Shown: positions 3,758 through 33,815 of the stretch, in pieces
How the letters are laid out: every line of letters starts with the position of its first letter
Position numbering within the stretch: the first letter of the stretch is position 1
NCBI RefSeq assembly: GCF_002367995.1
Contig: NZ_AP018207.1
Location: forward strand, 124,001 to 188,000
Direction: 5' to 3'
DNA length: 64,000 nucleotides
From: Calothrix brevissima NIES-22
GTDB taxonomy: Bacteria; Cyanobacteriota; Cyanobacteriia; Cyanobacteriales; Nostocaceae
Translations under genes and position numbers: made by a program
The notes under the pieces: model-generated
Told to the model about the DNA's origin: nothing
What the model saw: only the letters and a program-made list of their open reading frames with translations
The model's database searches: none

Positions 3758-3776
3758 AAGAGAGAATTTAGAATTT

Positions 3777-5309
<1,533 letters not shown>

Positions 5310-9438: not shown

Positions 9439-12400
9439 TTATGTCCAATGTGGTAGTTCGATCATCCGTTGGTTGGGATTCGCCACCAAGCTTGTTAGTA
9501 ATGTCTGCAAATAATTGAGTATGCGGGCGATCGCCTCAGCATCAAAATAGCGGTAATCATAGGTCATCTCCACGAACATTTCTACACCAGGAGTCACAGC
9601 TATGCAGAGTGGGTAAGACCAAAAATCAGTAGCGCGGAAACCCTCAATTTTTACACTTGACAAGCGCTCTCCCAAGGAATCGTCAATAGGGTAATTCTGG
9701 AACCGCAAGATACTTTCAAACAAAGGCTGGTTTTCCGGTACTTCGCTCCATTGATGTACCAGCGTCAGAGGACTGTATTCAAACTGGCGTAATTCTACCT
9801 GTTTAGTTTGGAAATGTTTTAACCAAGGCAGGATAGGCGCATCTAATGAAATTTGGACGCGGGCTGGTAAGAGGTTGGTAAATAGTCCAATCATGGAATC
9901 AGCGTCTTTTAAATCTGTGGGACGACCAGAAACGCTAATCCCAAAAGCTACATCATTGTTGCCGCTAAACTTATTTAAAAAGATGCCCCAAGCTCCTTCT
10001 ATCAGAGTGTTGAGGGTAATCTGAGACTGGCGTGCTAAGGACTGGAGGGCAGCAGTAAGTTCTGCTGACAAGCGCAGTGTTTGCAATCCGTACTCTTCTT
10101 TAGCTTGGAGCCAGTCACTAGCAGGTCGATTTGTACCCAAAAGATTTTGGCTCTTAAAGCCCTGTAATGCTTGTCGCCAGAAAGATTCCGCTTTGGACAT
10201 ATCTTGTTGCTGTAACCAAGCAATATAGTTACGGTAGGGACGAATGCTTTCTAGCTCCAGTTTTTGGTTTTGTCGAAATGCCTCATAAAGGGCAAAGACT
10301 TCTTGTAATATCAACGTGAAACACCAGCCATCCATCAATATATGGTGGATGCTCCAAACAAATTGATGTACGTCATCAGCCATCTGAATTAATGCCAATC
10401 GCATTAAAGGGGCTTGGGTATGGTCAAAACCCCGTTCTCGATCTGCTTTTAAAAAGGCTTCTAGTTGCTGTTGTTGTTGGCTTGGTGACAATTGCCGCCA
10501 GTCTTGTCGCTCCCAAGATAGGTTGAGATGGGTGCGGACAATTTGCACCTTTTCGGCTAAACCTTCCCATTTAAAGGAGGTACGCAATACGGCATGTCTA
10601 TCTACTAAGGTCTGCCAAGCTTGTGTAAATGCTTGATAATCGATTTCCCCTCGGAAAGTGCTGTCAAATTGCAGGAAATACAAACCTGCTGTTTGGGCGC
10701 GTTGAGATTGGATCAGCATCTCCTGTTGCATGGGTGTCAGTGGATACACATCCTCCACATCTGACTCACTTTCCAGTAAATCCTCTAAACTTTGTTTATC
10801 CAACAGAGGTGTGAGTGACAATGGTTCCATTGCTGTTTGTGGAACTGGTTCAGCAGAACTGCCAATGACTTCTGCAAGGGAGGCGATCGTTTGATGTTGA
10901 AATAGTTGTGGTGGTGAGAGTTTTAATCCGGCTTCGTTGGCTTTGGCGATGATTCTAATGGCTAGAACTGAGTCTCCGCCTAACTCAAAGAAGTTATCGT
11001 GAATTCCCATTGGTTCAATACCAATCACCGCTTGCCAAATTTCTGTCAAGGTTCTTTCTAGCTCAGTTCTGGGCCCAACATAGGGAGTTTGTAATTTTGG
11101 TCTGGGATGTTTTGTCGTTCCCTGAATTTTCTCGATTTCCTCACCGATATTTGATTGCATCAACAAAGCAACTTGCTCGATTGTGGCTTGTAAATCGGTG
11201 GTAGAAACGAGAATTTGGGGTAGCATATTCTGGCTCAACACCCTTGTAAATACTTCAACTCCTTCATGGGATAAAATACCCTCTCCCAAAACGTTTGACT
11301 CTGGTAGTTGCTGAGAATCATCGCTGTTAGCTGCAAAATCAAACACGCCTAAATCGGTTACTTTCTTCAATGTAAAGCCTTCAATTTCAACGAGTTCAAT
11401 TCCAGATTCATCCATAATTACAACATCAAAACTTATAGTTTCTTGATCGCGATCGCCTTTGTGTTTGACGTAGCTATAAATCTTGCTGGGTAAGGATGCT
11501 TGCATCCGAATGCGGTTGTACCAGAAAGGAAAATAATCAGCACCCCCTTCTTCCTGAGCTAACGTCACAGCAACATCTAATAATGCTGGATGTAAAGCGA
11601 ACTTTTCTACTTCTGCTGCATACTCTTGTGGCAGTTCGAGCATGGCTACAGCTTCGTTTTTGCCAAAGTGTACCTGTTTTAAACTCTGCCATCTAGGGCC
11701 AAATTGCATAGATTGTTGATTGTCAACATCATGCTTTTCCGCAGCATTGACAATATCCCGGACATGGGGACACCTGTTAAAAATCTCTTGAAGATTATAT
11801 TTTTTGGGCGGTTCCGGCGCTACACAAACAATTTTGCCTGTGGCGTGTTCTTGCTGTTGCCCATCACCACTGGCAACGGTAAATTCAAAAATGTCTGAGG
11901 ATTTGTTCAGTATTGTATAAACTTCTTGGTTGCCGTTTTCAGGGATAATTAAAGGTTGCAAAAAAGATGTTTCGCGGATTTCTACAATACCCTTATCGGC
12001 GTGTTTGGCAAAAGCAGCCCTAGCTATTTCTAAATAAGCTGTACCAGGAAGAATGGCATATCCTACTACCTTATGCTCATTTAAAACCCAATGCTTACTA
12101 ATGCTAAAGTCAGTTAAAAATACTTCGCGTTCGGGTGATTCTTCCACACATCTATCTAATAGTGGATGTGCAACTTCAAAACCAACAGCACCTTGTCGCA
12201 GCTTTTGCATCCACATCGGTATTGCTGTATTGACTTTAATGCCAACATCCTCCCATAAATCCCAGTTAATTGCTGTGGTGAATACGTGATGTTTGGCAGT
12301 GTAATATTGAGCGAAAGCGTCTAAAAAGGCATTGGCAGCACAATAATCAACCTGTCCAAACTCACCCATAATTGATTGCAAAGATGAGCAAAGGATCAAG

Positions 12401-16900: not shown

Positions 16901-19900
16901 TTACGCATCTACTAAACTGATCTCACGCTTTTCTTTGTTGAGTCTTTGGCGTTTTTGATATTGTTGTCGCCGATTGATTCTCTCTTGTTGTACTTCATTC
17001 TGAATAGTTATTTCTTCAGTTTTCTCATTTTCATTACTGTTTAAGAATTCTGCAAGGGAGCGGATTGTGAGACCTTCGTAAAGACTAACTACTGGGATTT
17101 CTTTACTTAGTAACTTTTTCAGGTCAGCAGTAACTTGAATTGCCAATAGAGAATCACCACCTAAATCAAAGAAATTGTCATCAATACCGATTTTTTCAAA
17201 ACCAAAAACTTTTTGCCAAACATTGGCTATTTGTTGTTCTAGTTCATTACTAGGAGCAATATAAGGAGTCGCAAGATTTGGTCGAGGATAGAGTGAATTT
17301 GTTCGCTCAACTACTTGCGAATTGATTTGATTTTCTCCAAGTGCAAGATTTTGCTGTAACTGCTCTAGCCGCAAGTTGAACAGACTGGAGAAATCCAAAT
17401 TTTGCATGTTTGCAAATGACTGCATATTTACATTTGGTGTCAGACTCCACAACTGCATAACTGCTTGGGGAATTGTTTCTAGTGTTTGCAATTCTTGCAA
17501 CAAGTTGTCATAGTCTTGACTCTGAGCCGGATTAATACTGTATGAGTGTTCTCCAAGTTTGCTAAATTGTTCGCCAACTCTGACAGTAATTACGTCTTGG
17601 TTTGCTACTTGCAAAAATTGGATGATTTGATTGCTCGCGCTACTTTCATCAACAAACAATAGCCAGTTGAGTTTCTGTTGTGTCAATGGGATATTTACTG
17701 CTAAAGCTGTATCTTGCTTGACTGGTGCTAATTTTGATGCTTGCGCTTCAATCCAGTATCTTTGGCGTTCAAAAGGATAAGTTGGCAAAGACAGGCGTTG
17801 ACGATGTTCGTCATTGTATAAACTAGACCAATCTATTTGTACACCTGCTAACCAAAGCTGTCCCAAGGTGTTTTGTAAGAAAGCTACATCTGATTGTTGA
17901 TCTTGGGGATGGCGTAAGGAAGACAGTGTTATTTGCTGGGGTTTTTTACTAGGATGGCGGAGAACAAAGGTGCTTAATGTGCGACCAGGGCCAACTTCGA
18001 GGAATAAGCGATCGCTTTCTTGTAACAATTCCTCTATACCGGCAGCAAATCGTACTGTTTGCCTTAAATGTTTAGCCCAGTAACTAGGGTCTGTAGCTTC
18101 GGTGTCGGTAATCCAAGTACCAGTGACATTAGAAATATAGGGAATTTGTGGCGGGTGCAAACGAAAACCTTTGACTAACTCTGTGAAAGTCAAGAGGATG
18201 GGTTCCATCATTACCGAATGAAAAGCATGGGAGGTATGCAGAGGACGGCATTCTATACCTTGGCTCGTCAGATGGTTGTGTAAGTTGGTTATAGCGGCTG
18301 TTGTCCCTGCAACTACACACATAGATGGTGTGTTAATCGTAGCTAATGAAAGTTCTGGGTTTAAAAAGGATTGAATTTCTGTCTCTGGTAAAGGTACAGC
18401 CAGCATTGATCCTGACGGTAGTTGCTGCATCAACCGACCCCGTGCTGCAACCAAAGCGAGGGCATCTTCTAAAGAAAATACTCCCGCCAAGCAAGCGGCT
18501 ACATACTCACCAATGCTATGACCGATTGTGGCTTCTGGCTGAATACCCCAAGACATCCACAGTTTTGCCAAGGCATATTCGATGACAAATAGCGCTGGTT
18601 GAGTGAGATAAGTTTGATTGAGTTGTTGGGTGGCTAATGCTACATCTTCAGAGGGGTACAGTACAGTTCGCAAATCCAATCCCAAGTGAGGTTCGAGCAA
18701 TTGGGCACATCGGTCTACTTCTTGCTGAAATGTCGGCTCTACTTGGTAAAGTTCTTTTGCCATATTCACATATTGAGAGCCTTGACCGGGGAACAAAAAA
18801 GTCACTGGTCGCTCTGTTAGTTCTTGAGAGTGGGTCAGGACTTGTTTTGGTTCTAGGGTTTGCAGTGCAAGTACTGCTTGTGCTTGGTCACGACAGACTA
18901 ACATCCGGCGGTGCTTATGGGTTCTGCGTCCGACTTGCAGGGTATATGCCACATCCGCAAGGTTTGAATTGGGGTGCTGCTGCAAATATTCTGCCAAGTT
19001 AGCAGTCATGGTTTCTAAGGCAGAATTAGTCTTGGCTGACAGCAGTAATAATTGCGAAGGACGGTTAGGTTCTGAAGTGGCGATCTCTGGTGCTTGTTCT
19101 AGAATGACATGGGCGTTAGTACCACCAATGCCAAAAGAACTAACTCCAGCTCGTCGGGGTGTACCAGATGTTTTCCACTCGGTGAGTTGAGTATTGACGT
19201 AGAAGGGACTGTTAACAAAGTCAATTTTTGGATGGGGCTGCTCAAAGTTTAAACTTGGTGGCAGCATTTGGTGTTTGAGGGCTAAAGCAGTTTTGATTAA
19301 ACCAGTGACACCGGCAGCTGTATCTAAATGTCCGATGTTGGTTTTGACTGAACCAATGGCGCAGAATTGTTTTTCGTCGGTACTTGTCCGAAAAGCCTGG
19401 GTAAGCGCCGCGATTTCAATGGGGTCGCCCAAAGCTGTGGCAGTACCGTGGGCTTCAATATAGGTAATTGTCTCGGCTGCTACCTCAGCCATGACTTGCG
19501 CCGCTTGAATTACCTTGGCTTGTCCTTCCACACTAGGAGCTGTATAGCCAACCTTGAAGGAACCATCGTTATTGACTGCCGAACCCTTGATGACCGCATA
19601 AATGCGATCGCCATCTGCTAGAGCATTTTCTAGTCGCTTGAGAACTACAATCCCCGCACCAGCGCCAACAACCATTCCCTGTGCTTTGGCATCAAAGGCG
19701 CGACAATGTCCATCGGGAGATAAAATCCCGCCTTGTTGATAGAGATAACCTGTTTTTTGAGGCAAGGGTATGGAAACACCACCAGCTAAAGCCATCTCGC
19801 AATCTCCACTCAGCAAGCTTTGGCAAGCGAGGTGAACGGCAACTAAGGACGAGGAGCAGGTTGTTTGCACCGTAATACTCGGCCCGGTTAAGTTGAGTTT

Positions 19901-20395
19901 ATAAGAAACCAAAGTGCTGAGATGGTCTTTATCATTGGCAGCAATTGCCGATATTTCTAGCAACTCCCGATTGCCATAAAGATGATTGAGCAAGTAATTA
20001 TTCATGCCTGCACTAGCAAATACGCCAATGGGACTTTCATAAGTTTGGGAGTTATATCCAGCATTTTCTAAGGCTTGCCAAGCACATTCTAAAAACAGGC
20101 GGTGTTGAGGATCGATAATTTCGGCTTCTCTCGGGGTGTAGCCGAAGAAAGCAGCGTCAAACTTCTCCACATCTGCCAACACTGATCCTGCTTTCACATA
20201 GTCGGGATTATTCAGTGAAGCTTGGTCTATACCTTGAGATAATAATTCTTCATCCGAGAACGATGAGATGGACTCGACACCATTGATCAGGTTGTGCCAA
20301 AACTCATCAATATTTTTAGCTCCCGGAAAACGTCCAGATAAACCGATAATAGCGACTTCTAAACCAGTGTATTGAGTGGATGTAGTGAGATCCAT
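16901..20395 (-). CDS. Type I PKS module KS-AT-(KR relic)-ACP
   Basis: A 1164-aa protein that should add one malonate unit without reduction. KS at about 12-435 has Cys180 (TTCSSS), EAHGTAT and NIGHLD. AT at about 530-845 has GHSIGEY and the malonyl-type HAFHS. Residues about 905-1000 (LNWLLFVDESS... to QLWSLTPNV) align with the KR structural subdomain of the neighbouring PKS (its residues about 940-1018), but the catalytic Rossmann half is missing. ACP has Ser1082 (LGGDSLLAIQ). A Lys/Arg/Gln-rich C-terminal tail could be a docking segment. It starts 18 bp after the NRPS stop codon, so the two are co-transcribed and probably consecutive on the assembly line. Confidence 0.93.
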   Translation of the reverse strand: MDLTTSTQYTGLEVAIIGLSGRFPGAKNIDEFWHNLINGVESISSFSDEELLSQGIDQASLNNPDYVKAGSVLADVEKFDAAFFGYTPREAEIIDPQHRLFLECAWQALENAGYNSQTYESPIGVFASAGMNNYLLNHLYGNRELLEISAIAANDKDHLSTLVSYKLNLTGPSITVQTTCSSSLVAVHLACQSLLSGDCEMALAGGVSIPLPQKTGYLYQQGGILSPDGHCRAFDAKAQGMVVGAGAGIVVLKRLENALADGDRIYAVIKGSAVNNDGSFKVGYTAPSVEGQAKVIQAAQVMAEVAAETITYIEAHGTATALGDPIEIAALTQAFRTSTDEKQFCAIGSVKTNIGHLDTAAGVTGLIKTALALKHQMLPPSLNFEQPHPKIDFVNSPFYVNTQLTEWKTSGTPRRAGVSSFGIGGTNAHVILEQAPEIATSEPNRPSQLLLLSAKTNSALETMTANLAEYLQQHPNSNLADVAYTLQVGRRTHKHRRMLVCRDQAQAVLALQTLEPKQVLTHSQELTERPVTFLFPGQGSQYVNMAKELYQVEPTFQQEVDRCAQLLEPHLGLDLRTVLYPSEDVALATQQLNQTYLTQPALFVIEYALAKLWMSWGIQPEATIGHSIGEYVAACLAGVFSLEDALALVAARGRLMQQLPSGSMLAVPLPETEIQSFLNPELSLATINTPSMCVVAGTTAAITNLHNHLTSQGIECRPLHTSHAFHSVMMEPILLTFTELVKGFRLHPPQIPYISNVTGTWITDTEATDPSYWAKHLRQTVRFAAGIEELLQESDRLFLEVGPGRTLSTFVLRHPSKKPQQITLSSLRHPQDQQSDVAFLQNTLGQLWLAGVQIDWSSLYNDEHRQRLSLPTYPFERQRYWIEAQASKLAPVKQDTALAVNIPLTQQKLNWLLFVDESSASNQIIQFLQVANQDVITVRVGEQFSKLGEHSYSINPAQSQDYDNLLQELQTLETIPQAVMQLWSLTPNVNMQSFANMQNLDFSSLFNLRLEQLQQNLALGENQINSQVVERTNSLYPRPNLATPYIAPSNELEQQIANVWQKVFGFEKIGIDDNFFDLGGDSLLAIQVTADLKKLLSKEIPVVSLYEGLTIRSLAEFLNSNENEKTEEITIQNEVQQERINRRQQYQKRQRLNKEKREISLVDA

Positions 20396-20413
20396 GTTCT
20401 ACCTTCTCAGTTC

Positions 20414-23400
20414 TTATTGTTGAGGATTAATTACCGATGAACGCGCTAAACGTTGCTTAAGACGATTTCTGCCTGCTTTCATATCTTCTAAGTTGCTTTG
20501 TGGCAAAGCAGATGTAGCATCGTCTTTGTCTAGACTGAGATGTTTTGCTAACAGGCTGACGGTGGAGTATTTAAACATCTCTATTATGGATACATCTCGA
20601 TCCAGGGTTTTCCGCAGGCGATCGTGAACTTGAATCATTAATAATGAATGACCGCCAAGGTCAAAGAAATTGTCATGCAACCCCACCTTTTCAACTTGCA
20701 GTACTTCTTGCCAAATATGAGCTATGGTGCGCTCTAACTCTGTTCGTGGAGCAACATAGGAGGCGGCTAATTCTATTTGCTGATGTTCTGGAATAGGTAA
20801 AGCACGACGATTGAGTTTGCCATTAGGTAAAACGGGTAGCGCCTCTAGCAACACAAAGGCCGATGGCAGCATAAAGTTAGGTAAGCGTTCTTGCAGAAAG
20901 GCTCGCAGGTCGCTAACACTCGGCTTTTGACCGGGTTGAGGAACCACATAAGCTACCAAGCGGCGATCGCCTGGAATATCTTCTCGCGCCTGTAACACCA
21001 CTTCTTTGACGGTGGGATGTTGTAGTAATGCTAGTTCAATCTCGCTTAATTCAATACGGAAACCGCGAATCTTTACTTGGTCGTCAATCCGACCGAGAAA
21101 TTCTATTGTTTTGTTGGCAAGATAACGCACCAAATCCCCAGTTTTATAGAGGCGTGCGCCAGGTTCGGGACTAAAAGGATGGGGAATAAATTTTTCTGCT
21201 GTCAAATCTGGTCGATTGAGATAGCCTCTAGCTAAACCAGCACCACCAATATACAGTTCTCCCCTAACTCCCAGGGGAACGGGTTGTAAAGATTCATCCA
21301 AAATATAGGTTTGGACATTGGCGATCGCACTGCCAATAGTCACTGCTGATGTCTCTATTAATTCGCTCATTGTGGCGACAATTGTTGATTCTGTCGGGCC
21401 GTAGGTGTTCATTAAAGATACATCTTGCCCTACAGATTTGTACCACTTTGTCAAGCGTTCTGGTATAACTCGTTCGCCACCGATAATTACTAATCGTACC
21501 GAACTAGGAAAACTGGCATTGCTGGTTTCTAAGTTAGCTGCTAGTTCGTGCCAATAAGATGTGGGCAGATTGAGGATATTAATACCCCAATTTTGGCAAG
21601 TTTCTAAGAATGTTGACACAGAAGCCAGCATTCTATCGGTTCGCAGTACAAGGGTGGCACCGCTTGTCAGACAAGGATAGATTTCTTCGGCACTGGTATC
21701 GAAACTGATAGAGGCAAATTGCAGAATCCGGTCATTAGCCTCGATTTTGTAAGCTTGACTAGCTGTATTGGTGTAACTTACTAAAGACCTGTGTTGTATG
21801 GCTACACCTTTAGGACGACCTGTAGAACCGGAAGTATAAATGATATAAGCCAGATTGTCTGCTGTGACTGGGGTCTGGGGGTTTTCTTTGCTATATTCAG
21901 CGATCGCTTGCCAATCTGTATCTAGACATACAACCTGAGTTTGGCATTCTGGCAAGCTGGTTAGTAGTCTTTGTTGGGTAAGCAATACAGGTACTTGAGC
22001 ATCTTCTAACATCAAAGCTAGGCGATCGCTAGGATAAGTCGGATCTAAAGGCACATATGCCCCACCAGCCTTGAGAATACTTAACATTCCCACCAACAAA
22101 TCTAAAGAACGTTCTAGACAAATGCCTATCCTTGTTTCTGGTTGGATACCACAAGCTAAAAGATAATGAGCTAATTGGTTAGCGCGATGGTTTAACTGTT
22201 GATAACTTAAGGATTCATTTTCTAAACAGACAGCGATCGCATCGGGAGTTACTTCTACTTGCTGCTCAAATAACTGATGGATACATCTATCTTCACCAAC
22301 AGAGATTTTGCGATTGTTGCCATCTAGTAATAACTGCTGACGTTCGCTGTCTTTTAATAGCGGTAAATTGATAATCGGCTGGTTACTATTGGCAACGATA
22401 CTTTCTAGTAAAGTTTGAAAATGCCCTGCCAAGCGATCGATAGTTGTGGCATCAAATAAATCTGTGTTGTATTCCCAAAAGCCAGTGATGCCGTTGGGAG
22501 TTTCCTCTAAACTGAGGGTTAAATCAAACATTGATGTTTGACGATCTATCGGCATTGATTGCAACGTCAGCCCCTTCAGTTCCAAGGCAGGTATAGAGAC
22601 GTTCTGAAGCACAAACATAACTTGGAAAAGCGGGTTACGGCTAGTGTCGCGTTCCGATTGCACCACTTCTACTAATTTTTCAAAGGGCAAATCTTGGTGA
22701 GCGTAAGCTCCTAAGGTTACTTCCCGTACTCTTTGCAACAACTCACTAAAGCTGGGATTTCCCCCCAAATCGGTACGTAGCACCAGGGTATTGACAAACA
22801 TCCCGATGAGTGGCTCGATTTCCTGGCGGTTGCGGTTAGCAATGGGAGAACCCACAATCATGTCATCTTGTTGACTGTAACGGTATAACAACACCTTAAA
22901 TGCTGCTAATAATGTCATAAACAAAGTGACACCTTCGCGCCCAGAAAGTATTTTCAACTCCTCAAGTAAAGCTTTGGGCAGTTCTATTGCTTGCTTGTCA
23001 CCGACGAATGTCTGTACTGCTGGACGCGGACGATCTGTGGGTAAATCTAATAAGGAACTACCTGTAAGTTGCTCCTGCCAATAAGTTATTTGTTGATCTA
23101 GTACTTCTCCCTGCAACCACTGACGTTGCCACACGGCAAAGTCTGCATACTGAACAGACAACTCAGGTAAAGGTGAGGGTTGATCTGTGGAATAAGCTTC
23201 ATACAGTGCCGCAATTTCCCGAATCATGACACCCATCGACCAGCCATCAGAGATGATATGGTGCATACTCAACAGTAGTAAATGCTCTGTTTGAGCTAAC
23301 TGCAAGAGTTTCACCCGTAAAAGCGGCCCTTGCAGCAAGTCAAAGGGTTCTTCCATCTCTTGTTTGACTAACTGTTGAATTTCTTGTTGTTGATTTGTTA

Positions 23401-26400
23401 ACCGACTCAAATCGACTATGGGTAAAGATAAAGTCAAATTGGGGCAAATTACTTGCGATGGTTGTCCTTCTATGGTGGTGAAGGTAGTTCGCAAAGATTC
23501 ATGACGCTGTACTACTTCATTCAAGCTTTGATGCAGTGCTGCCACATTTAGCGAACCAGTCATTTGCACAGCTTCGGTAATGTTATAAGCAGTGGTAAAA
23601 GTATCCAGTTGGTTTAAGAACCACAACCGCCCTTGAGCAAAGGAAAGGGGTAAATTGCGGTCGCGTGAAATCGGCAGGATGGGCAAAGCTTTGATATTGG
23701 GTGCTTGGCGATGAATTTTGGCAATTTCTTCGGCAAGTTCGGCGACTGTAGGCGCTGCAAACAAGCTACGCAGAGGTAACTCCACTTGGAAAGCTTCCCG
23801 CAATCGTGAAATTACTTGTGTTGCCAGTAAGGAATGTCCTCCTAAAGCAAAGAAGTTATCGTTGATACCTACTTTCTCCAGCCCCAGAATTTCCGACCAA
23901 ATAGCCGCCAGTACTTCCTCTACTACAGTTCTCGGCGCTATATATTCGCTTTCTGATTCCCAAATGGTAACTTCTGGGACTGGTAGCGATCGCCGATCTA
24001 CCTTGCCATTCGGAGTCAGTGGCAAATTATCAAGAATGACAAAGGCAGCAGGTATCATAAATTCTGGCAGTTTTTCACCCAGAAAAGCCCGCAAGGTTTT
24101 CACGGGTATCTCGTCTGCTGCTAGATAGGCAACTAAGCGCTTTTCGCTCGGTCGGTCTTCTCTGGCAACAACTACAACATCCCGTATACCTGGATATTGG
24201 CGTAAAAGTGCCTCAATTTCACCCAATTCAATGCGGAAGCCGCGAATTTTAACTTGATGGTCGAGTCTTCCTAAATATTCCAGATTGCCATCAGGCAGAT
24301 ATCGTACTAAGTCACCAGTTTTATAAAGGCGTGAATCGGGTTGATTGTTAAAGGGATTGTGAATAAATTTTTGTGCAGTTAATTCCGGTCGATTCAAATA
24401 GCCACGAGCCAAACCGCAACCACCGATATACAGTTCACCAGCAACCCCAACTGGCACGGGTTGGAGGTAAGCATCTAATACATAAACTTGAGTGTTGGCA
24501 ATGGGACGACCGATGGTGACACGATCCTCCGGCTTGACTAGCGTAAATGTGGAATAAGTCGTGTCTTCTGAAGGCCCGTAAAGGTTAAAAACTTGTTGGA
24601 CATTTGTTTGCTGATACAGTTGTTTGACCAGCTTTTGCGGTAGAGGTTCGCCTGCAAGGTTAATAGTGCGTACAGATGCAGGTATGCCGTTAATTCTGAG
24701 TAATTCCGCGATCGCCGAGGGAACGGTATTAATCAGAGTTACACCATCAGATGCTGCTAAACTGGGCAATGCCAAGGCATTTTCGACTAAAATCACCTTG
24801 CCACCACAACTTAATGCGGCAAACAATTCAAAAACCGACAAATCAAAGCAAACTGAAGTTGCTGCTAATACTCCCGCAAAATCCTCAGCGCTAAACACCT
24901 TTGTTGCCCAATCTAAAAAGGCAACTGCACTGCGGTGTTCGATAACAACGGCTTTTGGTTGACCTGTAGAACCGCTAGTGTAGAGGACGTAGGCGTTATT
25001 TTCTGGTAAAACTGGAACGTGGAGATTTTCAGGACTTTCTTGGCTAATTGTTTGCCAATCGCTGTCAATACAGACTGTTTGCGCCTCTGATTGTGTTAAT
25101 TGGTCGCGCAGTTGGTTTTGGGTGAGTAACACCGGTGCTTGGGCATCTTGCAACATAAAAGCCAAGCGTTCGGTGGGATATTTCGGATCTAGAGGAATAT
25201 AAGCGCCACCTGCTTTAAGAATGGCTAAAAGTCCTACCACTAATTCCCAAGAACGTTCTAGACAAATACCGACTCGAACTTCAGGTTTGACACCCAACTT
25301 TTGCAAATAACCTGCTAATTGATTGGCACGTTGATTTAATTGTCGGTAGGTAAGTTGTTGGTCTTGAAAAATCAGCGCTACCGCATCGGGAGTCTTTTCT
25401 ACTTGCGCTTCAAATAATTGATGGATGCATTTATCTTGCGGATAATCAGTCTGAGTCTGATTCCACTCCTCCAAGATTTGATATTTTTCTGGTTCAGTTA
25501 GCAAAGGCAAGTCAGATAACTGCTGTTCTGGGTTAGCAATTATCCCTGCTATCAATGTTTGAAAATGCCCTGCCATTCTTTGAATAGTTTCAGCATCAAA
25601 CAAATCTGTGTTGTACTCTAACCAACCTTTGATGCCATCTGGTGTTTCTGCTAAATCCAGTGTCAAATCAAACTTTGCTGTACCATTATCGATTTCTAAT
25701 GGAGTTAATTGTAAACCAGAAAATTCTAGTGCTGGCATCGGAGCGTTTTGCAGAGCAAACATCACCTGAAATATGGGTGTGTGGCTCATATCCCGTTCTG
25801 GTTGCAAAGTTTCTACCAGTTTTTCCAAAGGCAATTCTTGATGGTTATATGCCTCCAAAACCACATTCCGCACGGATGCAAGGAGTTCTTGAAAGGTAGG
25901 ATTTCCTTCCAAATTACTACGTAGCACCACGGTATTGATAAAAAACCCGATTAAATCCTCAGTTTCGGCGCGATCGCGATTAGCAACAGGAGAACCGACA
26001 ATGATATCTGCTTGACCTGTGTAACGGTAGAGTAGGATTTTAAAAGCGGTTAGTAGAGTGATAAACGGGGTAACTCCTGCTTGCTGACTCAAGTTTGCAA
26101 TTGCATCGGATAGAGATTTAGACAACTGCAATTTTTGCTTGGCTCCGCAAAAGGTTTGTACAGGAGGACGCGGACGATCGGTGGGTAATTGCAATACAGG
26201 CAAGCTACCAGCAAGTTGCTGTTTCCAGTAGTTAAGTTGAGTCTCTAGTAAATCGCCTTGCAGTCTTTGTCGTTGCCAAACAGCGTAGTCTCCATACTGA
26301 ATCGCCAGAGGGGATAGAGGTACTGGTTGATGATTTGAGAAAGCATCGTAAAACTTTGCCAACTCCCGCACCAACACCCCAAGAGACCAGCCATCAGAGA

Positions 26401-26944
26401 CAATATGATGCATTGTCAAAAGTAAGATATGCTCCTCATCTGACAAGCGTATAACTTTAGCGCGTAACAGTGGCAACTGGGACAAATCAAACGGCTGTTT
26501 GGCTTCTTGAGCAGCTAATTGCAGATATTGAGTATGGCGATCGCTTTTTGAATATTCTTCCAGGTTGATTATCGGTACTGTCAGAGTTTGGTGCGAGTGA
26601 ATTATCTGTACTGGTTGCCGATCGACTGTTGTAAATGTAGTTCGTAAAGCTTCATGACGCTGCACAATTTCATTTAAGCTTTGTTGTAACGCAGATATGT
26701 TTAAGCGTCCGGTAATGCGTACTACTGCTGGGATATTGTAGACATCGCTTCCCGGTTGCAACTGATCGAGGAACCACAGTCTAGCCTGTGAAAAAGAAAC
26801 AGGTGCAGTACCGGGGTTTTCTCTGGGAGAAATCTTTGATGATTGTTCTAGTTCTATACCTTCTTCCGCTAGTAAATATGCGAGAAGTTCGCGCTGTTCT
26901 GCGGAAATTCCTGTTTGGTTTGTTAATTGCTTGAATTCTGTCAT
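20414..26944 (-). CDS. NRPS, two modules: C-A-PCP-C-A-PCP
   Basis: A 2176-aa protein. C1 at about 45-475 has HHIVSDG (179-185). A1 at about 505-1000 has LYTSGSTGQPK; reading the ten specificity positions by alignment to GrsA gives DLFNNALTYK, which I recall as an Ala code in cyanobacteria. PCP1 has Ser1038 (LGGHSLL). C2 at about 1090-1520 has HHIISDG (1228-1234). A2 at about 1560-2050 has IYTSGSTGRPK; its code reads about DTANIGTIVK, which I cannot assign. PCP2 has Ser2100. There is no epimerase, methyltransferase or thioesterase. The N-terminus (residues 14-32, SAEQRELLAYLLAEEGIEL) is a helix typical of cyanobacterial NRPS starts. It likely adds residues 2 (Ala) and 3. Confidence 0.95.
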   Translation of the reverse strand: MTEFKQLTNQTGISAEQRELLAYLLAEEGIELEQSSKISPRENPGTAPVSFSQARLWFLDQLQPGSDVYNIPAVVRITGRLNISALQQSLNEIVQRHEALRTTFTTVDRQPVQIIHSHQTLTVPIINLEEYSKSDRHTQYLQLAAQEAKQPFDLSQLPLLRAKVIRLSDEEHILLLTMHHIVSDGWSLGVLVRELAKFYDAFSNHQPVPLSPLAIQYGDYAVWQRQRLQGDLLETQLNYWKQQLAGSLPVLQLPTDRPRPPVQTFCGAKQKLQLSKSLSDAIANLSQQAGVTPFITLLTAFKILLYRYTGQADIIVGSPVANRDRAETEDLIGFFINTVVLRSNLEGNPTFQELLASVRNVVLEAYNHQELPLEKLVETLQPERDMSHTPIFQVMFALQNAPMPALEFSGLQLTPLEIDNGTAKFDLTLDLAETPDGIKGWLEYNTDLFDAETIQRMAGHFQTLIAGIIANPEQQLSDLPLLTEPEKYQILEEWNQTQTDYPQDKCIHQLFEAQVEKTPDAVALIFQDQQLTYRQLNQRANQLAGYLQKLGVKPEVRVGICLERSWELVVGLLAILKAGGAYIPLDPKYPTERLAFMLQDAQAPVLLTQNQLRDQLTQSEAQTVCIDSDWQTISQESPENLHVPVLPENNAYVLYTSGSTGQPKAVVIEHRSAVAFLDWATKVFSAEDFAGVLAATSVCFDLSVFELFAALSCGGKVILVENALALPSLAASDGVTLINTVPSAIAELLRINGIPASVRTINLAGEPLPQKLVKQLYQQTNVQQVFNLYGPSEDTTYSTFTLVKPEDRVTIGRPIANTQVYVLDAYLQPVPVGVAGELYIGGCGLARGYLNRPELTAQKFIHNPFNNQPDSRLYKTGDLVRYLPDGNLEYLGRLDHQVKIRGFRIELGEIEALLRQYPGIRDVVVVAREDRPSEKRLVAYLAADEIPVKTLRAFLGEKLPEFMIPAAFVILDNLPLTPNGKVDRRSLPVPEVTIWESESEYIAPRTVVEEVLAAIWSEILGLEKVGINDNFFALGGHSLLATQVISRLREAFQVELPLRSLFAAPTVAELAEEIAKIHRQAPNIKALPILPISRDRNLPLSFAQGRLWFLNQLDTFTTAYNITEAVQMTGSLNVAALHQSLNEVVQRHESLRTTFTTIEGQPSQVICPNLTLSLPIVDLSRLTNQQQEIQQLVKQEMEEPFDLLQGPLLRVKLLQLAQTEHLLLLSMHHIISDGWSMGVMIREIAALYEAYSTDQPSPLPELSVQYADFAVWQRQWLQGEVLDQQITYWQEQLTGSSLLDLPTDRPRPAVQTFVGDKQAIELPKALLEELKILSGREGVTLFMTLLAAFKVLLYRYSQQDDMIVGSPIANRNRQEIEPLIGMFVNTLVLRTDLGGNPSFSELLQRVREVTLGAYAHQDLPFEKLVEVVQSERDTSRNPLFQVMFVLQNVSIPALELKGLTLQSMPIDRQTSMFDLTLSLEETPNGITGFWEYNTDLFDATTIDRLAGHFQTLLESIVANSNQPIINLPLLKDSERQQLLLDGNNRKISVGEDRCIHQLFEQQVEVTPDAIAVCLENESLSYQQLNHRANQLAHYLLACGIQPETRIGICLERSLDLLVGMLSILKAGGAYVPLDPTYPSDRLALMLEDAQVPVLLTQQRLLTSLPECQTQVVCLDTDWQAIAEYSKENPQTPVTADNLAYIIYTSGSTGRPKGVAIQHRSLVSYTNTASQAYKIEANDRILQFASISFDTSAEEIYPCLTSGATLVLRTDRMLASVSTFLETCQNWGINILNLPTSYWHELAANLETSNASFPSSVRLVIIGGERVIPERLTKWYKSVGQDVSLMNTYGPTESTIVATMSELIETSAVTIGSAIANVQTYILDESLQPVPLGVRGELYIGGAGLARGYLNRPDLTAEKFIPHPFSPEPGARLYKTGDLVRYLANKTIEFLGRIDDQVKIRGFRIELSEIELALLQHPTVKEVVLQAREDIPGDRRLVAYVVPQPGQKPSVSDLRAFLQERLPNFMLPSAFVLLEALPVLPNGKLNRRALPIPEHQQIELAASYVAPRTELERTIAHIWQEVLQVEKVGLHDNFFDLGGHSLLMIQVHDRLRKTLDRDVSIIEMFKYSTVSLLAKHLSLDKDDATSALPQSNLEDMKAGRNRLKQRLARSSVINPQQ

Positions 26945-27277: not shown

Positions 27278-30200
27278 TTATTTACCTTTTTTTTGCTGAA
27301 GTGTTGTTTGCAGTTCTTGAGTTGACATCGCTGTGATTTTTTGGAACACTTGAGCAATTTTTTCTATCTGACCTGGTTTGGTTTCACGAGTAATTAAAAG
27401 TTGTGAAAGCTGCGCTATGGTACTAGCCTCAAATAAGTTATGTACAGGTAGTTCTACATGAAAGATATCTCTGATTCGGGAAATCACTTGGATAGCAAGC
27501 AAAGAATGTCCCCCCAACTCAAAGAAATTGTCATCAATCCCAACGCGCTCAATTTGCAAAATTTCACGCCAGATCCCTGCTAAAACTTCTTCTAGTGGAG
27601 TGCTAGGAGGAACATAAGTGACAGCAAGTTCTAAGCTAGTAGCGTCGAGTGCTGGTAAGGCTCGATAATCTAACTTGCCATTTGGTGTCCGTGGCATTTC
27701 CGGGATAGTGACAAAGGCAGCAGGAATCATGTAGTCCGGTAAATGACGAGATAGATAAGAACGCAGGTATTTGGCGGATAGTTGTTGATTATCCTGATGT
27801 GGATTAACTTCACCTTGAGAAAAGAGGATTTCGGACAAAGAGTCTTCGCCAACGGAGGCAGAAAATTCTAACTGTTGATGCTCTTTGGGTACAAGGTAAG
27901 CGATTAAGCGCTTCTGGAATGCCTGATTATCTGTGTTATTTTGCACCACTACAGCAGCTTCTGCCACTCCTGGATATTGGCGCAAAACCGCTGCGATTTC
28001 ACCTAATTCTAAGCGGAAGCCGCGAATTTTCACTTGCTCGTCCAGACGACCGAGAAATTCGATATTACCATCAGGCAGATAACGGGCTAAGTCACCGGTT
28101 TTGTACAGTCGTGCGCCTGGTTCATTGCTAAATGGGTGGGGGATAAATTTTTCGGCGGTAGTATCAGGGCGGTTTAAGTAACCACGGGATAAACCAGCAC
28201 CACCAACATATAATTCTCCAGATACGCCAATGGGTACGGGTTGTAAATAATTATCTAGGATGTAAATTTGCTGGTTAGCAATGGGACGACCGATGGAAAT
28301 AACTTCCGACTGCGGCTGACACACCCAGGATGTTGCATCAATGGATACTTCTGTGGGGCCGTAGCAGTTGTGAAGTTCCACCCCTTGAAGACGGTTAAAG
28401 AAGCGATCGCGCAGTTCTTTTGGCAAGGCTTCACCACCACAGGTAATATAGCGTAATGCCTCACAAGCCTCTAAACCTGGTTGTTCTAAAATCAATTGCA
28501 ACATAGCAGGTACAAAATCCGCGATCGTGATTTGCTGCTGTTTCATCACCTGGACAAGATAGCTGGGGTCTTGATGACCGTTGGGTTTAGCCATCACCAG
28601 ACTTGCCCCTGAGAGTAAGGGGGCGAAAAATTCCCAAACACAGACATCAAAACTAAAAGAGGTTTTCTGTAATACTCGGTCTTTTGGGGTCAATTGGTAA
28701 CGTTCTATACCCCAAACCAAACGATTAACAATACCCATGTGGGGAATCATCACTCCTTTTGGTTGCCCTGTAGAACCGGATGTATAGATGATATAAGCAA
28801 GGTTGCCTGGGTTAACTGCGGCAGTTGGTTTCTCTGTGCTTTGTTGGTTAATAATTTCCCAATCTGTATCCAGGCAAATTACAGAGGCAGGTTGTTCAGG
28901 CAAACTAGTAACTAGAGACTGTTGGGTCAGTAGTATTTGAACTTCGGCATCTGCTACCATGAAAGCAATACGTTCCTTTGGATACGTATGGTCAAGAGGT
29001 ACGTAAGTAGCACCAGCTTTGAGTACGCCTAGTACCCCAATTGCCATTTCCAAGGAGCGCTCAAGGTAAATACCCACCCTAACCTCTGATTTTATACCGC
29101 TAGCTTGTAGATAATGTGCTAGTTGATTGGCTTGCTGGTTCAGTTGTTGATAGGTAAGTTGTTGGTCTTGAAAAATTACTGCAATAGCATTGGGAGCCTT
29201 CTCTACTTGAGCCTCAAATAGTTCGTGAAGACAAACATCTTTGGGATAATCAGTCTGAGTAGCATTCCACTCTACGAGCAATTGTTGCTTTTCGACTGCT
29301 GTTAATAACGGCAAAGTCGAGAGGGGTTGTTGGGAATTAGCAACAATATTTTCTACTAAAGTTTGAAAATGACTCGCCATGCGAGTAATTGTGTCTGAAT
29401 TAAACAAGTCGGCGTTGTACTCAAATGATGCAGCTAGAGAATTATTGACTTCTGCCATTGTCAGCGTTAAATCAAACTGAGCAACTTTTTGTTCCAGCGC
29501 TAGAGATTCCATTTGCAATTCACCCAGATGTATCTCTACTCCTGTTTCATTTAAGGTGAAGGCTGTTAAACCTTGCTCGTGCAACAAATGGGCTTTTTGC
29601 AAAACGAACATGGTTTGGAATAAAGGCGAACGACTGGAGTCGCGTACCGTTTGCAGTCGCTCGACTAGAAGTGCAAAGGGATAATCTTGATGTGTAAAAG
29701 CATCTAGTACTGTTTGACGTACTTGGGCTAAAAGTTGCTCAAAAGTCAGATTTCCCGATAAGTTTGACCGTATAACCACGGGGTTAACAAAGTAACCTAT
29801 TACTCCAGCCAGATCGGCTTCACTTCTACCTGCTGTGGGAGAACCAACTAAGATATCTTCTTGACCTGTGTAGCGATGGAGTAGCAGTTGATAAGCTGCT
29901 AGTAAAGTCATGTAGAGAGTGGTGCCACAAGTGCGGCTTTGAGTCTTGAGTTTTTCAGTCAGTTTTGCATTTAACTGGAAAGGAACAGAAGCACCTCGAT
30001 AGGTTTGTACGGAGGGTCGTGGATGGTCGGTAGGTAAATTTAATACTGGTAACTCCCCGGCTAATTGCTGCTGCCAATATGCCCACAGCTTTTCTCCTTT
30101 TGGACTTGCTAGCATTTGAGCTTGTTTGTAGGAGTAGTCAATATACTGTAGTGCTAAGGGCGGCAGAGAGAGGTCAGAACCTTGTTTTTCTGCCTGGTAT

Positions 30201-32749
30201 ATTGTTCCTAACTCCTGCGCCATGACTGCTAAAGACCAAAAGTCAGTGATGATGTGATGGACAACTAGAAGCAGAATATGTCCCTCTACTGAGTTAGTAA
30301 ACAGACTCACCCGCATCAAAGAATCTTGCTCTAAATTGAAAGGACGGTAAGCTTCTTGAGTCAGACGTTCTTTCAACAAGGTTTCACTCCAGTAAGAAAC
30401 ATCTTGCTGTTGAAAGCAAACATCCATCTGTGGATGAATTAGTTGCAGTGGTTCGCCTTGTCTGACAGCGAACGTAGTTCGTAAAGCCGGATGGCGATCG
30501 CTCAATTTCTGAAAAGCACGTTGCAAGGCGGCAATATCTACATCTCCCTTGAGTAGCACTGCGCTAGCAATGTTGTAAGCTGGGCTTGTTGGTGCTAGCT
30601 GATGCATAAACCAAAGCGATCGCTGTCCATAGGATAAAATTTGCTCGCCATCACTATGCTCAACTAATGCGATCGCAGTCTCTTGACTAGAGATATTTGC
30701 TGTCAACTGTTCTAGTACTTGGTTGGCAATCTGGGCAATACTATCACCTTGCAAAAAACTAGTCATAGACAAGACAACATCCAAGTCAGTTTCAATAGTG
30801 TTTTTTAGTTCAACAGCCATCAACGAGTCTAAACCTACTGTAGTTAACGGCTGTTGAATATCTAACTGGGAAATCTCTAGTCGTAGCGTCTGAGCAACGA
30901 GTTGCTGAAGATAAATTTCTAGCTGTCGTTGGCGATCTGGTGATGTCATTTCCAGAATATTTTCTCGTTTGGAACTATCAAACTGAGCTACCACAGAGGA
31001 TGCTTCTAATATGCTGCTACCTACTACGTCAAAGTCATGGTTGAGAAAGCCTACACGGCAGGCATGACGTTGAATCTTACCACTAGAAGTCTTAGGAAGA
31101 TTTCCTGGTTTGAGTAACTGGATAGCATAAACTTGTAGTTCGTGTTGTTCTGCTACCGCCTGACGAATAGCTCTCACTACCTCTTCGACATCAAAAGTCC
31201 GCAAGTGGGTGCGCTTCACTTCCACAACAACTGCTAGCCGTTCTTCACCAGCAACATCAATGGTAAATGCCCCACTACAGCTTGCTTGCAGTGCTGGATG
31301 GCTTTGTTCTACTGTCAATTCTATGTCCTGGGGATAATGATTACGACCTCGGAGGATCATCATATCCTTAAGGCGACCGGTAACATACAATTCCCCTGAG
31401 TGTAAAAATCCTAAGTCGCCGGTACGTAGAAATGGCCCGTCGCCAGTATCTTTGAGGTAGGCTTGAAAAGTGCTTTGAGTCTGTTCTATTCTTTGCCAGT
31501 AACCCTGAGTCACACTTGCACCAGCAACCCAAATTTCACCAACTTCATCAGCTAAACAGCTAGTCAATTTTTCAGGATGGGCAATAACTACCCGCAAATC
31601 CGCCAAAGGTTTTCCTGAGCTAACCAATGTCTGAGCAGTACCATCTTTTAAAGTGGTGGAAACAATCTGATTTTTTTCTAGCGCTGCTTTCTCAACAGTT
31701 TGGAATACTGGTGGTATTTTCTTACGACCACCAGAAACAATCAACGTTGTTTCTGCCATGCCGTAACATGGATAAAAAGCTTCCTGACGAAAGCCACAAG
31801 ATGCAAATGTTGCGGCAAACTTTTCTATAGTTTCAGCGCGGACGGGTTCTGCACCATTAAAAGCCACTTCCCAGCTAGTTAAATCAAGAGTTGCTCGTTG
31901 TTCGGCAGTAATTTTGCGAAGGCATAGATCGTAAGCAAAATTAGGCCCGCCACTGGTAGTAGCCTTGTATCGAGAAATTGCTTGCAACCAGCAGTAAGGA
32001 TTTTGCAGAAATGCGATCGGCGGCATGAGGATACTTTCTGTTCCTAAATACAGAGGCTGAAGCACATTCCCAATTAAACCCATGTCATGAAACAAAGGCA
32101 ACCAACCAACAACAATAGTTTGCTTGCTATGTCCAAAACCTGCTTCGATCAGTCTTTCGTTATGTAAAAGATTTCCATGACTAACCATCACACCTTTGGG
32201 CGTAGAAGTTGAACCTGAAGTATATTGCAGAAAAGCTAATGTATCTTCGGTAATAGTAATTTCCTGCTTTTTGTCTTCCAGATTGCCGACAAAACTATCA
32301 GTAGCAAACCATTTGAGAGGCTTCAATTCTGGATTGTTGTCTATGAGGCGAGAACTGTTAGATAGTATCTGCGCGGTAGTAAGTATGAGTTTTGCTTGGG
32401 CATCTGCCACAATAGCTTGCAGCCGAGGTGTAGGTTTATTTAAATGTGGTGGATAGGCAGGAACAGCAACAACTCCTGCATACAGACAGCCAAAAAATGC
32501 CGTAATAAATTCCAAACCAGATGGATAAAGAAGTAAGGCACGTTCTCCCTTGGCGATACCTCTAGACTGTAATTGAGAAGCAATGCTCTGAGCCTGTAGA
32601 TTCAAGTCTTGATAAGTCAATCTAGCTGTTTCTGTTTCACCATCTTGCAAAAATCGAAAAGCTATGTTGTTTGGTTGGTGTAATGCTTGATAACGTAGTA
32701 AATCTACTAATGTGGAGATTTTCAAATTATTGAATAACAAATTACTCAT
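27278..32749 (-). CDS. FAAL-ACP-C-A-PCP lipo-initiation NRPS
   Basis: An 1823-aa loading protein. The fatty acyl-AMP ligase (about 10-590) has YTSGSTSTPKG (176-186), PLFHDMGLIG and RTGDLG; it activates a fatty acid with ATP and loads ACP Ser642 (VGLDSLM). The C domain (about 700-1140) has HHIITDFW (831-838), with Phe where HHxxxDG has Gly, and presumably N-acylates the first amino acid. The A domain (about 1190-1680) has IYTSGSTGQPK; its code reads about DVWDTGCIDK, Ser-like at the edges but not a known code. It carries a 30-40 residue insertion near its C-terminal subdomain (HQQLEFSASVGEDSL...). PCP has Ser1749. This is the first gene of the cluster, so the product is an N-acyl lipopeptide. 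Confidence 0.95.
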   Translation of the reverse strand: MSNLLFNNLKISTLVDLLRYQALHQPNNIAFRFLQDGETETARLTYQDLNLQAQSIASQLQSRGIAKGERALLLYPSGLEFITAFFGCLYAGVVAVPAYPPHLNKPTPRLQAIVADAQAKLILTTAQILSNSSRLIDNNPELKPLKWFATDSFVGNLEDKKQEITITEDTLAFLQYTSGSTSTPKGVMVSHGNLLHNERLIEAGFGHSKQTIVVGWLPLFHDMGLIGNVLQPLYLGTESILMPPIAFLQNPYCWLQAISRYKATTSGGPNFAYDLCLRKITAEQRATLDLTSWEVAFNGAEPVRAETIEKFAATFASCGFRQEAFYPCYGMAETTLIVSGGRKKIPPVFQTVEKAALEKNQIVSTTLKDGTAQTLVSSGKPLADLRVVIAHPEKLTSCLADEVGEIWVAGASVTQGYWQRIEQTQSTFQAYLKDTGDGPFLRTGDLGFLHSGELYVTGRLKDMMILRGRNHYPQDIELTVEQSHPALQASCSGAFTIDVAGEERLAVVVEVKRTHLRTFDVEEVVRAIRQAVAEQHELQVYAIQLLKPGNLPKTSSGKIQRHACRVGFLNHDFDVVGSSILEASSVVAQFDSSKRENILEMTSPDRQRQLEIYLQQLVAQTLRLEISQLDIQQPLTTVGLDSLMAVELKNTIETDLDVVLSMTSFLQGDSIAQIANQVLEQLTANISSQETAIALVEHSDGEQILSYGQRSLWFMHQLAPTSPAYNIASAVLLKGDVDIAALQRAFQKLSDRHPALRTTFAVRQGEPLQLIHPQMDVCFQQQDVSYWSETLLKERLTQEAYRPFNLEQDSLMRVSLFTNSVEGHILLLVVHHIITDFWSLAVMAQELGTIYQAEKQGSDLSLPPLALQYIDYSYKQAQMLASPKGEKLWAYWQQQLAGELPVLNLPTDHPRPSVQTYRGASVPFQLNAKLTEKLKTQSRTCGTTLYMTLLAAYQLLLHRYTGQEDILVGSPTAGRSEADLAGVIGYFVNPVVIRSNLSGNLTFEQLLAQVRQTVLDAFTHQDYPFALLVERLQTVRDSSRSPLFQTMFVLQKAHLLHEQGLTAFTLNETGVEIHLGELQMESLALEQKVAQFDLTLTMAEVNNSLAASFEYNADLFNSDTITRMASHFQTLVENIVANSQQPLSTLPLLTAVEKQQLLVEWNATQTDYPKDVCLHELFEAQVEKAPNAIAVIFQDQQLTYQQLNQQANQLAHYLQASGIKSEVRVGIYLERSLEMAIGVLGVLKAGATYVPLDHTYPKERIAFMVADAEVQILLTQQSLVTSLPEQPASVICLDTDWEIINQQSTEKPTAAVNPGNLAYIIYTSGSTGQPKGVMIPHMGIVNRLVWGIERYQLTPKDRVLQKTSFSFDVCVWEFFAPLLSGASLVMAKPNGHQDPSYLVQVMKQQQITIADFVPAMLQLILEQPGLEACEALRYITCGGEALPKELRDRFFNRLQGVELHNCYGPTEVSIDATSWVCQPQSEVISIGRPIANQQIYILDNYLQPVPIGVSGELYVGGAGLSRGYLNRPDTTAEKFIPHPFSNEPGARLYKTGDLARYLPDGNIEFLGRLDEQVKIRGFRLELGEIAAVLRQYPGVAEAAVVVQNNTDNQAFQKRLIAYLVPKEHQQLEFSASVGEDSLSEILFSQGEVNPHQDNQQLSAKYLRSYLSRHLPDYMIPAAFVTIPEMPRTPNGKLDYRALPALDATSLELAVTYVPPSTPLEEVLAGIWREILQIERVGIDDNFFELGGHSLLAIQVISRIRDIFHVELPVHNLFEASTIAQLSQLLITRETKPGQIEKIAQVFQKITAMSTQELQTTLQQKKGK

Positions 32750-33668: not shown

Positions 33669-33815
33669 TGTTATGTCAAATTTGTACTCATTAGCTAAAC
33701 AGTTACTGCTATAAAAAATCAGACCTTTTAGTAGTGCTTTCCCACAGATGATATAAATATTTATCAATCGTAGTGATAGTTTTTTCTGACAGCAACTATT
33801 ATTTGTTACATTTGT

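What the first reader, a model, noticed from the sequence alone, without database searches (positions are those of the whole stretch)
9439..32749. FAAL-initiated NRPS/PKS lipopeptide line ending in a condensation domain, without thioesterase
The four biosynthetic proteins are in order on one strand and read FAAL-ACP-C-A-PCP, C-A-PCP-C-A-PCP, KS-AT-ACP, KS-AT-KR-DH-ACP-C. The last domain is a full C domain with an intact HHILMDG motif, no A or PCP partner exists for it, and no TE or reductase is present. Known stand-alone or terminal C domains release chains onto free amines or alcohols, so an acyl-tripeptide-diketide captured by a small nucleophile is predicted. I do not recognise this exact architecture as a named product.
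Basis: partly seen in the sequence, partly recalled or inferred. Interest (0 to 1): 0.7.

Follow-up and report, generated by a model that had tools for sequence, protein, structure and literature searches.

The report
Capped cyanobacterial lipopeptide line, no thioesterase
A cyanobacterial gene cluster builds a fatty-acid-capped peptide-polyketide and seems to let go of it with an unusual last domain; it belongs to a little-noticed family of clusters that keep much the same fatty cap, exporter and membrane peptidase but swap the rest, which suggests the cap is cut off outside the cell.

Summary
The terminal C is conserved, not debris: genome G041 carries the same unit with the same ORF end (terminal C 95% identical, dN/dS 0.088). 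It groups with C domains that follow E domains, yet departs from them at 23 of 98 near-invariant positions while keeping HHILMDG. TE-less release by a terminal C is already proposed for kasumigamide, phormidolide and basiliskamide. The FAAL-ACP-C-A-PCP starter, an MFS and this M28 recur in seven genomes with five kinds of tail: C after PKS, C after NRPS, KS-AT-ACP-R, C-A-MT-PCP-R, and TE. The first-residue code is shared by 6 of 7 starters against 0 of 20 FAAL relatives not near M28. I infer a lipopeptide cap removed after export, as in saframycin or colibactin, here by an M28 peptidase. Cap cleavage and the released nucleophile are untested.

The parts
27278..32749 (-). Starter protein FAAL-ACP-C-A-PCP (1823 aa)
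   Evidence: Pfam; FAAL solved relatives; about 62-89% identical starters in six other M28-linked clusters
31019..32716 (-). FAAL domain (residues 12-577)
   Evidence: (7r7e, 3kxw), NCBIfam fatty-acid--AMP ligase
27650..29218 (-). A1 domain, ten-residue code DVWDTGCIDK (residue X of the cap, unassigned)
   Evidence: columns chosen by recalled motif rules
20414..26944 (-). C-A-PCP-C-A-PCP (2176 aa)
   Evidence: Pfam
23945..25414 (-). A2 domain, code DLFNNALTYK (alanine; assignment recalled)
20795..22270 (-). A3 domain, code DTENIGTIVK (residue Y, unassigned)
16901..20395 (-). KS-AT-(KR remnant)-ACP (1164 aa); beta-ketone expected to stay
   Evidence: Pfam; motifs
17345..17704 (-). KR structural-subdomain remnant without catalytic KR
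   Evidence: PF21394, NF047870; dN/dS 0.236 over residues 880-1040
9439..16314 (-). KS-AT-KR-DH-ACP-C (2291 aa)
   Evidence: Pfam; motifs
9448..10758 (-). Terminal C domain (residues 1853-2289)
   Evidence: 95% identity to G041; dN/dS 0.088; model pLDDT 86.6; DCL-like in tree and fold
10327..10347 (-). HHILMDG active-site motif of the terminal C
8115..9419 (-). MFS exporter, 19 bp after the terminal C gene
   Evidence: Pfam; conserved in G041 at 96%, dN/dS 0.088
5310..7610 (-). M28 metallopeptidase with one N-terminal and several C-terminal hydrophobic segments (766 aa)
   Evidence: Pfam; hydropathy and motif positions; PDB relatives include M28 aminopeptidases
6792..7244 (-). M28 metal-site motif region (HYDS, GASDDG, GEEPG, FEARG, YHTAYDN)
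   Evidence: meaning of the motifs recalled
33420..33828 (.). Conserved stretch upstream of the starter gene, 77.6% identical with gaps, probably non-coding

Best explanation
A complete, probably horizontally moving six-gene cluster. The FAAL loads a fatty acid onto an ACP; NRPS modules add X, Ala and Y; two PKS modules add a beta-ketone unit and an enoyl unit, giving fatty acyl-X-Ala-Y-diketide on the last ACP (domain order shown; chemistry inferred). The terminal C, a re-specialised DCL-type condensation domain with no A-PCP partner in the cluster, offloads the chain onto a free nucleophile, most likely a small amine (release by C about 65%; identity of the nucleophile unknown). The MFS exports the lipopeptide and the membrane M28 peptidase then trims the conserved acyl-X-Ala cap outside the inner membrane, freeing the amine of Y next to the keto-enone tail (about 45%). 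The tail is the part that varies between clusters and would be the active part; the cap would serve as leader, membrane anchor or mask.
For: Terminal C: same ORF end in G041, 95% aa identity; dN/dS 0.088 against 0.10-0.15 for C1-C3 of the same line; HHILMDG intact; 23 of 98 near-invariant columns changed, against 2-16 of 85-93 in 23 relatives. All 28 fetched next-best loci (52% identity or less, one per genome) have an A domain after the C; here nothing follows. Cap and peptidase: M28 at E 1e-60 or better is rare (10 of 217 family genomes; 6 of 388 order genomes; 15 distinct genomes). Seven carry it in clusters with a FAAL-ACP-C-A-PCP starter of 62-89% identity, an MFS (68-96% identity in six counting the window's own, a weaker match in G140) and different tails. 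These starters form one clade against 20 FAAL relatives not near M28 (97/93; 98% of bootstraps), and A1 is DVWDTGCIDK or DVWETGCISK in 6 of 7 against 0 of 20. Their M28s form one clade too (99/99). A2 is the Ala code in 5 of 7. More distant M28 relatives sit in FAAL/NRPS clusters of G219, Janthinobacterium and Azospirillum.
Against: No nucleophile-making gene is among the six genes. M28 enzymes of known structure found here include several aminopeptidases, which normally need a free N-terminus (recalled), whereas the cap is N-acylated; cleavage inside it would be a departure. G021 has M28 but another A1 code and no A domain in its second protein, and G140's second A code is Ser-like, so the cap is not strictly fixed. 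Seven of the 15 genomes with M28 (G059, G093, G187, G188, G281, G303, G533) show no NRPS or PKS domain in the fetched flanks, although G093's copy is at a contig edge; a Paenibacillus plasmid relative has no annotated NRPS beside it. The M28 hydrophobic part is the least constrained segment measured (dN/dS 0.335). A divergent sequence departs from near-invariant columns anyway: the most distant relative in the set, at 37%, departs at 16. No product is known.
Confidence: 0.45

Rival explanations
1. The terminal C closes a ring: a hydroxyl or amine inside the chain (side chain of X or Y) attacks the ACP thioester, as fungal CT domains do.
For: CT-type release exists (passages of PMC11546977); no nucleophile gene is present; X and Y are unassigned and could carry a nucleophile.
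Against: The domain is DCL-like in sequence, tree and fold; CT structures rank lower (5dij, rank 28). A ring through the cap would conflict with cap removal.
Confidence: 0.2
2. The M28 peptidase is a self-resistance enzyme (product-degrading, or a spare target) rather than a maturation enzyme.
For: Tails in G140, G145 and G258 end in reductase domains that could give electrophilic aldehydes; peptidase-inhibitor products are plausible.
Against: M28 tracks the head of the line (starter clade and X code) and not the tail, which is the opposite of what target or tail protection predicts.
Confidence: 0.25
3. The line is truncated: the terminal C is a relic of a lost C-A-PCP module and release is by hydrolysis or a trans-acting thioesterase.
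For: Its relatives are the C of a C-A unit (28 of 28 fetched loci) and the ORF ends where the C-A linker would begin (read); TE-family genes exist elsewhere in the genome.
Against: Same end kept in G041 with strong purifying selection; active motif intact.
Confidence: 0.15
4. A trans A-PCP protein elsewhere supplies an aminoacyl acceptor to the terminal C.
For: One C-less A-MT-PCP-R protein exists at G000:C1:5.07 Mb, and another cluster's protein begins with A-PCP.
Against: The A-MT-PCP-R is about 5 Mb away; 62-78% orthologs lie in genomes without the terminal C, and G041 lacks a close one. Seven other lone AMP-binding frames show no carrier domain. The terminal C ends without a docking tail (sequence).
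Confidence: 0.07

Closest known systems
Kasumigamide lines (kasC) and other TE-less lines ending in C (phormidolide, basiliskamide, palmerolide)
   Same: Cluster lacks a TE and the last domain is a C proposed to release the chain (passages of PMC5061366, and PMC8739492).
   Different: Different modules and products; palmerolide's C is truncated to 133 residues, this one is full length; no FAAL/M28 head is mentioned in the passages seen.
Saframycin, naphthyridinomycin and dnacin leader-peptide lines (SfmE, NapG, DinC)
   Same: Fatty acid or leader removed by a membrane peptidase: SfmE removes the fatty chain in saframycin, NapG is the membrane protease that yields the matured prodrug, and dnacin's DinC is a 741-aa NapG-like peptidase (passages of PMC9570651, PMC11285072, PMC7570522, PMC9854587).
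   Different: Actinobacterial tetrahydroisoquinolines; the passages do not state the peptidase family, so whether SfmE, NapG or DinC are M28 is untested here.
Colibactin-type prodrug lines (ClbP, XcnG, ZmaM and others)
   Same: N-acyl-amino-acid cap, export, then cutting by an inner-membrane peptidase; homologous peptidases serve unrelated products (passages of PMC9889268).
   Different: ClbP is family S12 with a D-Asn cap; here the peptidase is M28, and the four C-family domains of the line carry C-type and no E-type motifs.
Jamaicamide JamQ
   Same: Cyanobacterial line with a C domain thought to act in ring formation (passages of PMC2799420).
   Different: JamQ is a separate gene on the other strand; here the C is fused to the last PKS module.

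Membership tests
TE-less line released by a terminal C | Full-length C as last domain with intact HHxxxDG | tested here: met
TE-less line released by a terminal C | No TE or reductase in the cluster | tested here: met
   for the window; the matching unit of G041 was compared by alignment and gene order
TE-less line released by a terminal C | The C catalyses release | not testable with these tools
   constraint only
Fungal-type CT cyclase | Sequence and fold closest to CT | tested here: not met
   closest are elongating C domains, several after E domains
Leader/prodrug NRPS system | Conserved acyl-aminoacyl head module tied to a membrane peptidase across different tails | tested here: met
   exceptions: G021 differs in A1, G140 in A2
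Leader/prodrug NRPS system | Exporter gene in the cluster | tested here: met
   an MFS in 7 of 7 FAAL clusters with M28; G140's is a weaker match, absent from the E 1e-30 list
Leader/prodrug NRPS system | Peptidase removes the cap | not testable with these tools
   no experiment
ClbP-type (S12) prodrug peptidase | S12 serine peptidase | tested here: not met
   PF04389 M28
Peptidase family M28 | PF04389 match and metal-site motifs | tested here: met

The most novel reading that the evidence does not exclude
A new prodrug logic in cyanobacteria: FAAL-initiated lines install a nearly fixed fatty acyl-X-Ala mask, an MFS exports the masked compound, and a membrane M28 metallopeptidase, of another family than ClbP, unmasks it. 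The mask-exporter-peptidase set is combined with exchangeable tails and release domains. In the window the unmasked amine of Y lies beside a keto-enone made by the two PKS modules and could close a five-membered ring spontaneously, much as colibactin forms its warhead.
Probability: 0.35. Interest if true: 0.8.

Novelty: new variant of a known kind. Interest (0 to 1): 0.6.

Why it matters
If right, the M28 gene and the DVWDTGCIDK starter code become a search handle for masked cyanobacterial metabolites, whose active forms would be missed when only the lipopeptide predicted from the megasynthase is sought. The family also lets release domains (terminal C, reductase, TE) be compared behind related starters, and the terminal C gives a clean case for asking how an elongating C becomes a release C.

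Tried and rejected
Trans A-PCP partner: a C-less A-MT-PCP-R was found and set aside by distribution; seven other lone AMP-binding frames have no carrier domain by my profile. Truncation artefact: rejected by G041 and dN/dS. SDR at 3777-4739 as a tailoring enzyme: it is protochlorophyllide reductase (LPOR) and lies outside the unit. C1 motif HHxxxD[FL] as a family mark: present in 27 of 27 FAAL-linked C domains compared, so not special. Cyanochelin as the product: the passages show FAAL, TE and aspartate beta-hydroxylase and the word peptidase does not occur in the text. X and Y were not assigned; I know no trustworthy match for their codes. The order searches are samples of 388 genomes.

C-domain tree: a quick tree with long branches flagged, on loci mostly fetched for likeness to the terminal C. 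From the classified domains it used 40 of 44 E-following, 11 of 11 FAAL-following, 8 of 8 PKS-following, 28 of 111 after A-PCP (25 at random plus 3 from the own genome's two other terminal-C proteins), none of 38 after a split A-PCP, and the 8 of the window and G041; a few rows are the same domain fetched twice, and domains with other contexts were left out. I use it only for the E-following placement; most of the best PDB ranks by sequence and fold are of that kind too (which of them follow an E domain is partly recalled).

FAAL control: the 20 are the first 19 non-M28 starters in the rank plus G006; G173, G112:C86 and G032, ranked between, were skipped. Sixteen of the 20 lie in genomes without an M28 hit; the other four (G000, G021, G034, G059) lie far from it or on another contig.

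Literature: ten searches. Three for M28 or prodrug peptidase with NRPS or cyanobacteria gave 0, 0 and 1 paper, that one being dnacin. Twelve papers were opened and seen only as passages, none in full; PMC3252866 and PMC8648761 gave nothing used here.

Full report
Observation. The four ORFs at 27278-32749, 20414-26944, 16901-20395 and 9439-16314 (minus strand) carry FAAL-ACP-C-A-PCP, C-A-PCP-C-A-PCP, KS-AT-ACP and KS-AT-KR-DH-ACP-C. KS, AT, KR, DH and C motifs are intact (C1 reads HHIITDF, as its FAAL-linked kin do); my carrier pattern found the ACPs of proteins 1, 3 and 4 but not the PCP of protein 1 or the two of protein 2, which Pfam finds. Both ATs have HAFH. The KS-AT-ACP protein keeps a piece of a KR structural subdomain but no catalytic KR. 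No TE or reductase is in the cluster.

Boundaries. In the only other genome of the 217 family genomes searched with an ortholog of the terminal C (G041, 95%; next best 52%), window 5304-32772 aligns collinearly at 89-92% nucleotide identity, while the rest does not match, apart from 33420-33828 (77.6%). The unit thus has six genes: four synthases, an MFS exporter (8115-9419) and an M28 peptidase (5310-7610). G041 is listed under another genus, so the unit has probably moved between lineages. The SDR at 3777-4739 lies outside and is LPOR.

Terminal C. It is full length, models well as a C domain (pLDDT 86.6), and its best solved relatives are McyB by sequence and PvdL E2-C3, SrfA-C and tyrocidine modules 1-2 by fold. 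In the 28 fetched next-best loci it is followed by an A domain in 28 and preceded by an E domain by motif in 21; a broader motif plus profile labelled five more (labels). In the tree it lies inside the E-following group. Yet it sits after a PKS ACP and ends within a few residues of the domain. Between G000 and G041 its dN/dS is 0.088, below C1-C3 (0.150, 0.102, 0.101) though above the KS domains (0.053-0.054). It departs from 23 of 98 near-invariant columns of its relatives, which themselves depart at 2-16 of 85-93; part of this may be plain divergence. I read it as a working domain re-specialised for a new acceptor. The same genome has two more proteins ending in a full C, one followed by an MFS.

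Partner search. PF00668 gives 61 hits, PF00501 53 and PF00975 11 (7 over the cut-off) in the own genome. A C-less A-MT-PCP-R lies at 5.07 Mb. Its orthologs at 62-78% lie in G116, G117, G059, G012-G015, G017, G018 and G134, in none of which an ortholog of the terminal C was found; G041's best match is 52% within a larger frame. Seven other lone AMP-binding frames (463-734 aa) show no carrier domain. One further protein begins with A-PCP but belongs to its own cluster; it was not tested further.

The family. M28 at E 1e-60 or better is found in 10 of 217 family genomes and 6 of 388 order genomes including the window's own, 15 genomes in all. In seven (G000, G041, G140, G145, G034, G021, G258) it ends a cluster that starts with a FAAL-ACP-C-A-PCP protein of 62-89% identity (in G140 with an insertion) and has an MFS. 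The tails differ: terminal C after KR-DH PKS (G000, G041); terminal C after C-A-PCP, with PALP, phosphoribosyltransferase, amidotransferase, racemase-like and ATP-grasp genes (G034); KS-AT-ACP-R (G140; G258 with extra modifying genes); C-A-MT-PCP-R (G145); C-PCP-C-PCP-TE, the TE matching about half its profile, with a separate A-PCP (G021). In G219 a FAAL NRPS and M28 share a contig. In G093 M28 lies at a contig edge and a cluster like G219's on another contig, so linkage is open. In G059, G187, G188, G281, G303 and G533 no NRPS or PKS domain was found in the fetched flanks. Among 24 plasmid records with distant M28 matches I read five regions: Janthinobacterium and Azospirillum (FAAL plus NRPS), Streptomyces (NRPS plus MFS), Paenibacillus (no NRPS annotated) and Nonomuraea (not annotated).

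Control. I compared the seven M28-linked starters with 20 FAAL-ACP-C-A relatives from the same genome set (choice told under Tried and rejected). The M28-linked ones form one clade (97/93, one change in 98% of bootstraps). Code DVWDTGCIDK (five) or DVWETGCISK (G140) occurs in 6 of 7 against 0 of 20; G021 has DAEDLGTIVK. A2 is DLFNNALTYK in five of the seven; G140 has DVWHMSLIDK, and G021 has no A domain there. The M28s of these clusters also form one clade (99/99). The FAAL and M28 trees differ inside (G140 groups with the window by FAAL but with G021 by M28), so parts have been exchanged.

Mechanism. Shown: domain order, conservation, constraint, co-inheritance of starter, exporter and peptidase, variety of tails. 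Inferred: fatty acyl-X-Ala-Y-diketide; release by the terminal C to a nucleophile; export; removal of the acyl-X-Ala cap by M28. The inference rests on M28 following the head and not the tail, and on precedents: SfmE and NapG and ClbP. It is weakened by the aminopeptidase nature of several of the nearest solved M28 enzymes, by G021 and by the M28 relatives without NRPS neighbours.

Novelty. TE-less release by a terminal C is known or proposed. A cyanobacterial FAAL-MFS-M28 family with swapped tails was not found in the searches made, which cover open-licence papers only.

Noticed in passing
L141:15833-20000 and L142:1-2354 (about G000:C1:7065833-7072353): Another protein of the same genome, A-PCP-C-A-PCP-C, ends in a full C (HHIITDG) between a fatty acid hydroxylase gene and an MFS gene: a second probable terminal-C line.
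   Followed up: partly
L143:3680-8143: Single-gene TubC-C-A-PCP-C protein ending in a C with HHIVCDR, between an anmK-like gene and a TldD/PmbA-like gene.
   Followed up: partly
L165:8774-13405 and 3224-8838: In G034 the line stops at the C that aligns with C3 of the window, beside PALP, phosphoribosyltransferase, amidotransferase, racemase-like and ATP-grasp genes that may make the amine it joins to acyl-X-Ala.
   Followed up: partly
L144:7502-11965: Lone A-MT-PCP-reductase protein with orthologs in several related genomes, function unknown.
   Followed up: partly
L160-L161 (G021:C1:6977989-7001632): 11,822-bp perfect tandem duplication covering the tail, MFS and most of M28 of the G021 cluster; real or an assembly artefact.
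   Followed up: no
L187:20019-42208: Janthinobacterium lividum plasmid with M28, FAAL, ACP, NRPS, 2,3-diaminopropionate genes and dioxygenases: a distant M28-FAAL cluster.
   Followed up: partly
window 38573-41611 and 41981-44653: Caspase-nSTAND1-FGE-sulfatase-like protein and a TPR-CHAT protein next to the cluster, with another CHAT-like gene at 33988-36171.
   Followed up: no
window 33420-33828: Upstream stretch 77.6% identical to G041 with 29 gap positions; translated matches in many frames score alike, so it is probably non-coding, perhaps a control region.
   Followed up: partly
C1 domain after FAAL, window residue 831 of the 27278-32749 protein: All 27 FAAL-linked C domains compared have HHxxxD followed by F or L instead of G.
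   Followed up: yes
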